This document shows positions 26,727 to 31,853 of a DNA stretch of 64,000 nucleotides, piece by piece. Each line of letters starts with the position of its first letter. Position 1 is the first letter of the stretch. A program made the position numbers and the translations under genes. Under the pieces are notes generated by a model. It saw only the letters and a program-made list of their open reading frames with translations, ran no database searches and had not been told where the DNA came from. This stretch comes from Rhizophagus irregularis (lineage: Eukaryota > Glomeromycota > Glomeromycetes > Glomerales > Glomeraceae): positions 2,418,001 to 2,482,000 of the forward strand of contig NC_089437.1 of the NCBI RefSeq assembly GCF_026210795.1, written 5' to 3'.

Positions 26727-29700
26727 ATGTCTACCTTTTCTACTCGAAACAAAAAGAAAGCAAATGCACCATCTTCTTTTGAAAATCAATTGGCTCTTTT
26801 GCAAGATAGTGAGAGCGCCAATGGTAAGTAAAACGCGACCGTTTACGTTAATAATTCAAGTTAATTATTAAAACTATTTTTTGTTCGCTATAGCTGAAAA
26901 AGCTCACCAAGTTTGGACACGTCCAAGTGTGCCAAATATCGACCCTAATCGTGACTCTATAAGTAAGTAAGATATTTATAGTCTATCATTCGACATCAGA
27001 CATTCACATTTAATGTTTCCATAGTATTTCAGCAAATTGAAATCGACGATACCATCGATCCCGAATCAAGAGAACCAATAATCCGAATGTTCGGAATTAC
27101 GGAGGTACATCAGAATGAACGATTTTGCTAAGTCTCCTGTCTCTGTTAATAACGATTTTTCCTCGATAGATTGGAAATAGCGTTCTTTGTTATGTCACGG
27201 GATTTCGTCCATATTTTTATATTCCAGCACCAATTGGTTTCAAAGAAAATGATTTATCTAATTTACAAAAACAGATCACGGTAATTGTATAATAAAATCT
27301 TATTTGAACTTTTTTATTTATTTCTAAACTTCAAATAATAATAAGTAATATGTTTAGCGCGCTATTCAACCGGAAAATAGTTTAAAGAAGCCAATCGAAA
27401 GAATTGAACTTACTTTTAAAGAGAGTATATGGGGTTATCATGGAAATAAAAAGAGCCAGTTCCTCAAAATTATTTTTAGTGAAGTGAGAGCTATGAATGT
27501 TGCTAGACATATCCTTTATAATCTAATCTTCCGTTTTTCGTATTAACAAATAAATATGATAAATAATCCTTAACACCTTGTACGCCTCATTGAGGATGGA
27601 GCTATTAAATATAACGAACGGCAACTTCGAGAAATGACATTTGAAAGCAATATCAGTTATGTCTTACGATTCATGATTGATTGCAAGGTTTTCATCTTAT
27701 ATTATCATTTTGCAAATTTGTTATCTACGAACTAATTTCTCATATAGGATTGTTCTGATTAGGTTACTGGAGCAAATTGGATAGAACTACCACCAAAAAA
27801 TTATAATTTGCGTACTAATTCGCTCGAGACATCTACTTGTCAACTGGAAATTGATATAAAGTAATACTTGTGTAGATAATTTCATTTATGTTTTAATAAA
27901 TAAATAATTTATTAATTTTTATAACTGCTTAGATACGACCGATTTATTAGTCATCCTCCTGAAGGCGAATGGTCAAAAGTAGCTCCATTGCGTATTCTAA
28001 GTTTTGACATTGAATGCGCAGGTCGCAAGGGCATTTTTCCTGATCCCACAGAGGACCCAGTTATTCAAATAGCCAATATGGTTACGAGACAAGGTCACTT
28101 TTTCTTATAGATGTAAATTGATTTAAATAATAATTAATTAATCCGTTATTTAATTACACTTTATAGGTGAAAAACATCCTTTTATCAGAAATGTCTTTAC
28201 CTTAAATTCTTGTGCTCCAATTGTTGCAACTGATGTCATCGAATGTTATGATCAAGGGAAGATGTTGCAAGCATGGAGAGATTTTGTAATCGAGGCATGT
28301 ATATTGTTATGTCAACTTATATCATGTGATTTGATAATAATCTTTATATTGATTGTTTTTAATAGGTAGACCCTGATGTTATCATAGGATATAATACCAC
28401 AAATTTTGATTTTCCATATTTACTTGATCGCGCCCAGCATTTGAATGTAAAGAAATTTCCATATCTTGGTCGTATGAAAGGTAAACATATACGTTATTCT
28501 CTAATTCTTATCTTCTTGAGAAATAAATGATTTTTCTAAAATTATTTATATTTTAATAAGGTATAAAAACAGAGGCTAAAGACACTAAATTTTCTTCAAA
28601 AGCGTATGGAACACGGGAAAACAAATTTATCAATATCCTTTTTTTACATAAAACTAATAACCATGTAAATCACCATTATAATTATTAGTCTTAACTAAAA
28701 TTTACATCTTGAAGGAAGACTTCAGCTTGATATGTTACAGGTTATGCAGCGTGATCATAAGTTAAGATCTTATACACTTAATTCTGTATGTGCTCATTTT
28801 CTAGGTGAGATATATATTATTTTTCATTTAATCCATTTAATTAATTTATATTTGGTACATGTAAATAAGATTTTTGAAATTATAAAGGGGAACAAAAAGA
28901 GGAAGTACATCATTCTATTATCACTGATTTACAAAATGGAAATGATGAATCACGACGAAGGTTAGCGATTTATTGTTTGAAGGTCTGTAGTTTATCATTT
29001 AAATAAATACATATTTATACAAGTAAATTTAAGTAACTTGATATTAACTATTTGCTAGGATGCAATCTTGCCACAGAGACTAATGGACAAACTCATGTGC
29101 ATTATCAATTATCTTGAAATGGCTCGTGTTACGGGAGTTCCGTTCAATTATCTTCTTTCTCGTGGACAACAAATTAAAGTAATATCACAATTATACAGAA
29201 AAGCATTTGAGCAAAACTTAGTTATACCGGCTTTAAAATCAGAGGGTATTAAATATTTGTTATTTATCCTGTTATTTCGGTTAAAGTAAAATTTGACGGT
29301 GCTAATGTGCAATTACTTAGGGTCCGATGATCAATTTGAAGGAGCAACCGTTATTGAACCAGAAAGGGGATTTTATAATGTTCCAATAGCTACACTTGAT
29401 TTTAGCTCTTTATATCCTTCTATCATGATTGCTCATAACCTTTGTTATACAACATTATTGGATATCAAAGATATTGATAAATTAGGTGATGTTGATTATA
29501 TTACAACACCATATAACAATGGTAGGTATTAACAAAAAAGGTTATGGGTTTTTGTCAAGCACTTAACTAACTTATATATCATTAATTACATTAGCAAAGT
29601 TTGTGAAAGTCCATCATCGAAAGGGACTTTTACCTACAATCTTGGAAGATCTTCTCTCTGCACGCAAGAAAGCCAAGGCAGATTTAAAAAAAGAGACAGA

Positions 29701-31853
29701 TCCTTTTAAAAAAGCTGTTCTTGATGGACGTCAATTAGCCCTTAAGGTAAGGTATTATATTTTTCTTCTAAAGTTTCGCGTAAATGTTTTTACCATTATT
29801 GCATATGTTTAATAACTAATGAACTTAAATTGAAATGAAACCAAAACATTCTCTTATAGATTAGTGCAAATTCTGTATATGGATTTACTGGTGCTACAGT
29901 TGGTAAGCTTCCTTGTATTGAAATTTCAGCAAGTGTCACAGCTTATGGACGCCAGATGATTGAAAAGACAAAACAGGTTGATGTTTATTTCATAGTTGAT
30001 TTATAATATTGTGAAATATCAAGTTTATATGCATTATTTTATTAGGAGGTGGAAAGTCAATATACCATAGCCAATGGATATCAACATGATGCTCATATTA
30101 TTTATGGAGACACAGATTCTGTTATGGTAAAATTTGGAGTGGATAATCTAGTTGATGCCATGGCTTTAGGTAATATTTCCATTAGCATTCATTTTTATAT
30201 TTAGATGGTTATTAACATACTTTAATAGGGAGGGAAGCGGCAGACTATGTTACAAGGAAATTTGTTAAACCAATTAAATTAGAATTTGAAAAGGTTTACT
30301 TTCCATATCTATTAATAAATAAAAAGCGTTATGCTGGTTTATATTGGACAAATCCAGATAAATGGGATAAATTAGATACTAAGGGTATTGAGGTAAGCTT
30401 TTGATGCAAAGTTTGTTAAAAATTGTGGAAATTAAACGTCATTCTTATTATAATAATAGACTGTCAGGAGAGACAATTGCCTTCTCGTACAAAATGTAAT
30501 AGAAACATGTTTGAGGAAAATGTTGATTGATCGGGATGTTTCTGGTGCCGAAGAGTACGTACCTAATATGTTTTTCTTAATATATTACCCATTGACATTT
30601 GCTTAACATTTGGTACTTTCATAGATACGCTAAGAAAACAATTTCAGATTTACTTCAAAATAAAATAGACATGTCGCAATTAGTTATCACAAAAGCCTTA
30701 AGTAAATCAGGTGGATATTAATAATAATTGTTAATTTCTTTACATTTTTGTTGAATATATGTAATTTTATTAATTGATATATCACCATCCAGATTATTCG
30801 GCTAAACAGCCACATCATGAATTGGCTGAACGTATGCGTAAGCGTGATGCAGGCAAGTAACACGGTTAAATTCGTTTTTAATTATAAAAATTTTTAACAT
30901 TTATATATATATATATATATATTTATTTATTTATTTTAATTAAAAAAAAAAAGGTTCCGCGCCAACACTTGGCGATCGGGTCGCTTATGTTATAGTAAAA
31001 AGTACTAAAGGTAATAAATTTATATTTTATGTTTATTTCATACCAAATTATGTGAGTCAACGTATTATTTGAAAAATTTAGGCGCCGCTGCCTACGAAAA
31101 ATCGGAAGATCCGATATATGTTCTAGAAAATAATATTCCTATTGACACTAACTATTATTTGGAGAATCAATTATCTAAACCATTATTACGAATTTTCGAA
31201 CCAATTCTTGGCGACAAAGCTCAGTCTTTACGTGAGTAGTGAACTTATAATATTTAAATGAACGAGTTATAATAATCATTTTATATTTATCAAGTTGCTG
31301 GTGATCATACTCGTGTCGTTCAAATTGCAACACCAACAATTGGCGGATTGATGAAATTTGCTGTAAAGACAGCTACTTGTTTAGGATGTAAAACTCCTCT
31401 ATCAAAAAAAGGTATTTCTACAATTTATGTCAATAATAATATTTAGATTCTTACACTTTCAAAATTATAGACACAGCAGTATGTCGACATTGTAAGCCGA
31501 AATTGGGTGAATTATATCAGCGACAGGTAATCTCTTTCATTGCATGTTTTATTATAAGAACATTTATAACTATCTTTTCCCGATAGCTCGACACTGTAAA
31601 CAAACTCGAAGTCCATTTTGCTCGGTTATGGACTCAATGTCAAAGGTGTCAAGGCAGCTTACATCAGGATATTCTCTGTAGTTCAAAGGATTGTCCTATA
31701 TGGTACGAATCGAGATCTATGGTCGATTACTCCTTATTTTTTTTTAATTAACGCCAATGAATTGTAATTTATGGCAGGTATATGAGGAAGAAGGCCCAAA
31801 AAGATGTGCAAGATGCAAATAATCTTCTTGAAAGGTTCAATTATGCGTGGTGA
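26727..31853 (+). CDS. POL3: DNA polymerase delta catalytic subunit
   Basis: B-family replicative polymerase with 3'-5' proofreading; extends the lagging strand with PCNA. About 28 short exons give a full-length protein of the expected size, roughly 1,070 residues. Visible motifs in order are Exo [11 protein letters not shown], Exo [14 protein letters not shown], Exo III YCLKDAILP, motif [11 protein letters not shown], motif [14 protein letters not shown] and motif C YGDTDSVM, so both active sites look intact. The C-terminus has two four-cysteine modules (CLGCK...CRHC, then CQRC...C...C); the second is the family Fe-S site that binds the B subunit. Two introns (27509-27583 and 28633-28705) are U12-type AT-AC and two (28295-28365 and 30853-30953) use GC-AG ends. 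An MCB box precedes the start. Most other exon borders were placed by eye. Confidence 0.96.
27509..27583 (+). other. U12-type AT-AC intron in POL3
   Basis: The 75-base intron begins ATATCCTTT, carries the branch sequence TCCTTAAC at 27567-27574 and ends in AC 9 bases later. No GT-AG pair near it restores the frame. AT-AC splicing joins AGA-C to GC-CTC and yields VARRLIEDG, the expected polymerase delta sequence. Confidence 0.92.
28295..28365 (+). other. GC-AG intron in POL3
   Basis: The donor reads GAG|GCATGT and the acceptor AATAG|GTAGAC. Only this pair keeps the frame into [10 protein letters not shown] (Exo II). The alternative GT donor 4 bases downstream runs into a stop. Confidence 0.75.
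28633..28705 (+). other. Second U12-type AT-AC intron in POL3
   Basis: A 73-base intron starting ATATCCTTT and ending AC, with GTCTTAAC as the branch-like sequence at 28689-28696. Splicing gives [17 protein letters not shown], matching the conserved polymerase delta segment. The branch is one base off the usual TCCTTAAC. Confidence 0.88.
30853..30953 (+). other. GC-AG intron in POL3
   Basis: The donor GCAG|GCAAGT is the strong GC-AG form, and the acceptor follows a long A run. The joined product reads [13 protein letters not shown], which matches the family. Confidence 0.75.

What the first reader, a model, noticed from the sequence alone, without database searches (positions are those of the whole stretch)
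27509..28705. Two U12-type AT-AC introns in one fungal DNA polymerase delta gene
Introns 27509-27583 and 28633-28705 both start ATATCCTTT, have TCCTTAAC or GTCTTAAC branch sequences close to the 3' end, and end in AC. Both restore conserved polymerase delta sequence exactly, and no GT-AG option does. Minor-spliceosome introns are lost from most studied yeasts and rare in fungi, and AT-AC ends are a minority even among U12 introns. Two in one essential replication gene imply a working minor spliceosome that is needed for growth.
Basis: partly seen in the sequence, partly recalled or inferred. Interest (0 to 1): 0.88.

Follow-up and report, generated by a model that had tools for sequence, protein, structure and literature searches.

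The report
Two AT-AC introns in POL3 gene
A gene for an essential DNA-copying enzyme, in what is probably a mycorrhizal fungus, contains two introns of the rare kind cut out by the cell's second, "minor" splicing machine; the reading is sound and parts of that machine are encoded in the genome, but minor introns in this kind of fungus were already reported in 2023.

Summary
The window carries one DNA polymerase delta catalytic subunit gene (POL3/POLD1; + strand, 26727-31853; 28 exons). Of its 27 introns, 23 are GT-AG, 2 are GC-AG and 2 are AT-AC (27509-27583 and 28633-28705, both phase 1). Each AT-AC intron starts ATATCCTTT and has a U12-like branch sequence 10-11 nt before its end. Removing them restores sequence that aligns with human and yeast pol delta. 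The same assembly encodes U11, U12, U4atac (narrowly) and U6atac above Rfam cut-offs. These pair with the two introns and, for U4atac/U6atac, with each other. A U11-48K protein and a likely 59K (PDCD7) are also encoded. I infer from size, contig number and base composition that this is Rhizophagus irregularis. There, 205 minor introns, all four minor snRNAs and several minor-spliceosome proteins were reported by Larue and Roy (NAR 2023). So this is a good new instance of a known kind and no longer a surprise. "Needed for growth" is plausible but untested. One loose end: the AT-AC-specific factors CENATAC and TXNL4B were not found, by searches too weak to show absence.

The parts
26727..31853 (+). 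POL3/POLD1 gene (DNA polymerase delta catalytic subunit), 28 exons, 1045 aa; 23 GT-AG, 2 GC-AG and 2 AT-AC introns
   Evidence: Gene model; phmmer of residues 1-1020: pol delta chains 6s1m 1272.8 bits (human, organism recalled) and 6p1h 1226.8 bits (yeast, organism recalled); a 256-residue piece finds only these exons above 43% identity in the genome
27509..27583 (+). Intron 5: U12-type AT-AC, 75 nt, phase 1 (after codon 169)
   Evidence: ATATCCTTT...GTAC; placed by spliced alignment; retention gives a stop at codon 182
27567..27574 (+). Branch sequence TCCTTAAC of intron 5; branch A to 3' end 10 nt
   Evidence: With one A bulged, 7 of 7 pairs with GTAAGGA of this genome's U12
28633..28705 (+). 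Intron 11: U12-type AT-AC, 73 nt, phase 1 (after codon 395)
   Evidence: ATATCCTTT...TTAC; placed by spliced alignment; retention gives a stop at codon 414
28688..28695 (+). Branch sequence GTCTTAAC of intron 11; branch A to 3' end 11 nt; weaker than consensus
   Evidence: 5 Watson-Crick plus 1 wobble of 7 with U12 GTAAGGA

Best explanation
The two stretches are genuine minor (U12-dependent) spliceosomal introns of the AT-AC subtype in what appears to be a single-copy pol delta gene. The proposed steps are: U11 pairs with the shared 5' splice site (AUCCUUU with AAAGGGU) and U12 pairs with the branch sequence UCCUUAAC (or GUCUUAAC) with one A bulged out. The U4atac/U6atac snRNP then joins, and U6atac (AAAGGA) replaces U11 at the 5' site. 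Cutting ends at the AC 10-11 nt after the branch A. The product is an uninterrupted pol delta reading frame. Shown here: sequence, frame, homology fit, and the presence and complementarity of the snRNA genes. Inferred, from the established minor-splicing pathway: that splicing happens in vivo, its efficiency, and dependence of growth on it.
For: Spliced alignment prefers AT-AC at exactly these sites with two references, and all 16 open-frame GT/GC-AG alternatives in the range tried score lower, summed over both references. Retention of either intron gives a premature stop. U12 68.9 bits (cut-off 53), U11 71.9 and 55.5 (39), U4atac 55.0 (53), U6atac 79.9 (33). Pairing: U11 with each 5' site 6 Watson-Crick plus 1 wobble of 7, U6atac 6 of 7; U12 with the branch 7 of 7 and 5+1 of 7; U4atac with U6atac 16 contiguous pairs counting wobbles. 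AATCCCATAA begins 63, 65 and 57 bases upstream of the U12, U6atac and U4atac matches. 48K: zinc finger 32.5 bits and, on the same strand of the same locus, an exon matching the 48K chain 8r7n_F, 34.3 bits, E 2.3e-7. PDCD7/59K: C-terminal exon 25.6 bits, E 8.5e-6. Precedent in PMC10639083 section 34.
Against: No RNA reads were available. Intron 11's branch sequence departs from the consensus at two positions. U4atac passes its cut-off by only 2 bits. The 48K zinc finger by itself scores higher in total with GTSF1 (31.5 bits, two stretches) than with 48K (18.9 bits), so the 48K call rests on the second exon. PDCD7 stays below Pfam's cut-off (21.1 and 25.6 against 27). CENATAC and a second DIM1-family protein that would be TXNL4B were not detected, and SCNM1 reached only 17.4 bits against a cut-off of 27. 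The exact-motif count in the genome (18 places) exceeds the tool's backwards control (5 places) but not my own reversed-branch control (28 places), many of whose matches look like copies of one repeated coding sequence.
Confidence: 0.96

Rival explanations
1. The introns are spliced by the major spliceosome at nearby GT-AG sites, giving a slightly different protein.
For: Open-frame GT-AG choices exist: 27533-27631 or 27533-27601 for intron 5, 28665-28725 for intron 11.
Against: The best of them cost 36 and 74 score units summed over yeast and human, replace conserved residues (for intron 11, LEGRLQ becomes [10 protein letters not shown]) and would leave two exact ATATCCTTT boundaries unexplained.
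Confidence: 0.02
2. The boundaries are AT-AC but the major spliceosome removes them, as happens for some AT-AC introns (stated in PMC8280824, passage seen).
For: Major AT-AC introns exist.
Against: The full U12 5' site (ATATCCTTT) and TTAAC branch sequences are present in both, and all four minor snRNAs are encoded.
Confidence: 0.02

Closest known systems
Minor introns of Rhizophagus irregularis (Larue and Roy, NAR 2023, PMC10639083; passages, sections 30, 34 and 35, and the first of two parts of section 36 read)
   Same: Probably the same species. 205 minor introns (0.272% of 75,377 annotated introns), all four minor snRNAs, and orthologues of RNPC3, SNRNP35, SNRNP25 and ZMAT5 reported.
   Different: The main text contains no occurrence of 'polymerase', of '48K' or of 'CENATAC'. 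Whether these two introns are among the 205 could not be checked (supplements not readable here).
U12 introns of Phycomyces blakesleeanus and Rhizopus oryzae (PMC2846911, BMC Genomics 2010; passages read)
   Same: U12-type AT-AC introns in fungi outside Dikarya (9 or 8, by method, and 1 in Table 2).
   Different: Far fewer in total; no occurrence of 'polymerase' in the main text.
Human AT-AN minor introns promoted by CENATAC (PMC8280824, EMBO J 2021; passages read)
   Same: Same intron subtype.
   Different: In human cells CENATAC, whose strongest interactor is TXNL4B, promotes this subtype; neither was found here, inconclusively.

Membership tests
U12-type (minor) intron, AT-AC subtype | 5' splice site RTATCCTT | tested here: met
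   ATATCCTTT at 27509 and 28633
U12-type (minor) intron, AT-AC subtype | Branch sequence near TCCTTAAC able to pair with U12 | tested here: met
   Exact in intron 5; GTCTTAAC in intron 11, weaker
U12-type (minor) intron, AT-AC subtype | Branch A about 10-20 nt before the 3' end (range recalled) | tested here: met
   10 and 11 nt
U12-type (minor) intron, AT-AC subtype | AT...AC ends at the boundary that restores the protein | tested here: met
U12-type (minor) intron, AT-AC subtype | Excision by the minor spliceosome in the cell | not testable with these tools
   No reads
Genome with a minor spliceosome | U11, U12, U4atac and U6atac genes | tested here: met
   All over Rfam cut-offs, U4atac by 2 bits
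Genome with a minor spliceosome | U11-48K protein | tested here: met
   the zinc finger alone matches GTSF1 at least as well
Genome with a minor spliceosome | 59K (PDCD7) protein | tested here: inconclusive
   C-terminal exon below Pfam cut-off; PDCD7 chain 8r7n_D 12.3 bits, E 1.7, the only match listed; a further piece from the locus gave no PDCD7 match
Genome with a minor spliceosome | 65K (RNPC3) protein | not tested
   Reported for R. irregularis in PMC10639083
Genome with a minor spliceosome | CENATAC and TXNL4B | tested here: inconclusive
   No match to PF14968 (which warns that nothing rang in any genome); one DIM1 locus from 3 candidates, TXNL4A-like
DNA polymerase delta catalytic subunit | Near full-length match to solved pol delta | tested here: met
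   1272.8 and 1226.8 bits, against 290.3 for the best pol zeta chain

The most novel reading that the evidence does not exclude
This fungus splices perfect AT-AC minor introns, two of them in one essential replication gene, without the CENATAC-TXNL4B pair that promotes this intron subtype in human cells. That would make it a natural test of whether that pair is truly required for AT-AC splicing.
Probability: 0.15. Interest if true: 0.55.

Novelty: new member of a known kind. Interest (0 to 1): 0.33.

Why it matters
It ties the minor spliceosome of an early-diverging fungus to production of a replicative DNA polymerase: either intron, if kept, brings in an early stop codon. That would make loss of minor splicing costly in this lineage and gives two clean AT-AC reporters for testing it. 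The general fact, a rich minor-intron set in this fungus, is already in print.

Tried and rejected
GT-AG splicing was tried as an explanation and rejected on protein fit. Other RTATCCTT sites in the window: of 5, 2 are these introns, 29412 lies in exon 15, and 34045 and 52776(-) have no TCCTTRAC with at most one mismatch at a suitable distance followed by a fitting 3' end. That combined scan of the window found one perfect candidate, the first intron, and 2 candidates with two mismatches; the reversed window gave 3 of the latter and no perfect one. Intron 11 fails the scan because it allowed only one branch mismatch. A genome-wide exact-motif count was tried and kept only as weak support: 18 places, the tool's backwards control 5, my reversed-branch control 28. 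My first gene model had an off-by-one at intron 9 and gave stops; it was corrected (one search also moved the last junction by one base). One branch-pairing line was mis-indexed and was redone. The stronger U11 hit first seemed to lie on the wrong strand; the locus had not been turned by the tool, and its reverse complement is the U11. Literature searches on pol delta and minor introns: searches listed no paper, searches listed two each (one shared), which I did not open and which look unrelated by title. Searches (minor spliceosome, Glomeromycotina; assembly with 32 chromosomes) listed none; one search listed only PMC10639083. Comparison of intron positions with animal and plant POLD1 was not done: the genome collections offered here are prokaryotes, phages and plasmids.

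Full report
What is there. The window is G000:C9:2418001-2482000 of a genome of 146.7 Mb in 32 contigs; the window itself has 28.8% G+C. A 28-exon gene on the + strand, 26727-31853, encodes a 1045-aa protein. A phmmer search with residues 1-1020 matches pol delta chains 6s1m (1272.8 bits; human) and 6p1h (1226.8 bits; yeast) over nearly full length; the best pol zeta chain follows at 290.3 bits (the organisms are recalled, the listing names only the molecule). A 256-residue piece of the protein gave 25 matches in the genome: 5 are this gene's exons at 89-96% identity, and the other 20 reach at most 43%. The gene therefore appears single-copy in this assembly.

The two introns. Of 27 introns, 23 are GT-AG, two are GC-AG (28295-28365 and 30853-30953) and two are AT-AC (27509-27583 and 28633-28705). 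Both AT-AC introns are phase 1, start ATATCCTTT and carry TCCTTAAC or GTCTTAAC with the branch A 10 or 11 nt before the end. The first is a perfect U12-type match. The second has a weaker branch sequence.

Test of the boundaries. I wrote a spliced aligner that scores only protein similarity and a fixed cost per intron type, and ran it on 27358-29245. With GT-AG and GC-AG alone the best score is 1056 (yeast) and 944 (human). Allowing AT-AC, at the cost of GC-AG and above that of GT-AG, raises these to 1116 and 1000, and exactly these two AT-AC introns are chosen. All four runs contain one frameshift; I attribute it to the segment ending inside a codon. I then listed the GT/GC-AG pairs of 41-140 nt near each intron that leave the whole frame open. 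There are 9 and 7; the best reach 289 against 325 and 445 against 519, summed over the two references. Keeping either intron gives a stop at codon 182 or 414.

The machine. Rfam models find U12 (68.9 bits, cut-off 53), U11 (71.9 and 55.5, cut-off 39), U4atac (55.0, cut-off 53) and U6atac (79.9, cut-off 33). The same four searches over 14 control genomes passed the cut-off in none; below it they rang in 0, 1, 1 and 8 (U12, U11, U4atac, U6atac; the last three at E up to 1). The first 25 nt of both U11 matches hold AAAGGGT, which pairs at 7 of 7 positions (one wobble) with +3 to +9 of both introns; U6atac pairs at 6 of 7. U12 carries GTAAGGA, which pairs 7 of 7 with the first branch sequence and 5 plus one wobble of 7 with the second, one A bulged in each. 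U4atac and U6atac share 16 contiguous pairs, counting wobbles. The 10-mer AATCCCATAA begins 63, 65 and 57 bases upstream of the U12, U6atac and U4atac matches. One U11 has it with 2 mismatches 57 upstream; the second U11 copy has nothing close at that place (best 3 mismatches at 19) and may be inactive. This looks like a shared snRNA promoter element; I ran no chance control on it.

Proteins. U11-48K is probably present: a CHHC finger (32.5 bits; one of the 14 control genomes also passed the cut-off of this 25-position model) lies on the same strand of the same locus (L007) as an open frame matching residues 203-240 of the 48K chain 8r7n_F (34.3 bits, E 2.3e-7). The finger on its own is not decisive: it scores 31.5 bits with GTSF1 and 18.9 with 48K. 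A 59K/PDCD7 C-terminal exon is likely but below cut-off. Of four pieces given to Pfam, one matched the 48K finger, one PDCD7 below its cut-off, and two nothing relevant. 65K was not tested here; it is reported for R. irregularis. CENATAC was not found (and the tool warns that nothing rang anywhere). The DIM1 family gave one locus, whose joined exons match TXNL4A at 233.6 bits and TXNL4B at 69.1. SCNM1 reached 17.4 bits, below its cut-off of 27. These misses are weak: exon-by-exon search, a loose first filter, possible gaps.

What is known. By size, contig count and base composition I take the genome for Rhizophagus irregularis; this is inference from recall and no call names it (looked for a supporting paper and listed none). 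Larue and Roy (PMC10639083; passages, sections 30, 34 and 35 and the first part of section 36 read) report 205 minor introns there, 0.272% of 75,377, with all four minor snRNAs and orthologues of four minor-spliceosome proteins. On growth their results are mixed: genes with minor introns were somewhat more highly expressed in the cell type scored as proliferating, but minor-intron retention was modestly higher there, not lower. This does not favour a special role of minor splicing in proliferation, nor does it show that it is dispensable. Their main text has no occurrence of 'polymerase'. Whether these two introns are in their set is unknown. At their rate, a gene with 27 introns would hold two or more minor introns by chance with probability about 0.0026 (my arithmetic, Poisson), so a pair in one gene is uncommon but expected somewhere in a genome.

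Verdict. Novelty is limited to the gene and the pair. The loose end worth following is whether the factors specific to AT-AC introns are really missing.

Noticed in passing
window 28295-28365 and 30853-30953: Two GC-AG introns in the same gene; the first has a weak donor (GCATGTAT) but restores VDPDV, as in yeast.
   Followed up: partly
L001, L004, L005, L006 (upstream of the snRNA matches): AATCCCATAA begins 57-65 bp upstream of the U12, U4atac and U6atac matches and 92 bp upstream of a below-cut-off U6atac-model match that looks like U6 (recalled): a likely shared snRNA promoter element.
   Followed up: partly
L002 and L003: Two U11 loci on different contigs; the C30 copy lacks a close match to the upstream element and may be a pseudogene.
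   Followed up: partly
G000 C30:609231-609917 (L009): The TXNL4A-like gene has an intron that starts GTATCCGTT and has CCCTTAAT near its end, possibly a degenerate or converted minor intron.
   Followed up: no
G000, e.g. C6:216925, C3:764865, C21:48044: Twenty further matches to the pol delta piece at 36-43% identity, several in uninterrupted frames of 500-1363 codons, perhaps family-B polymerases of mobile or viral elements.
   Followed up: no
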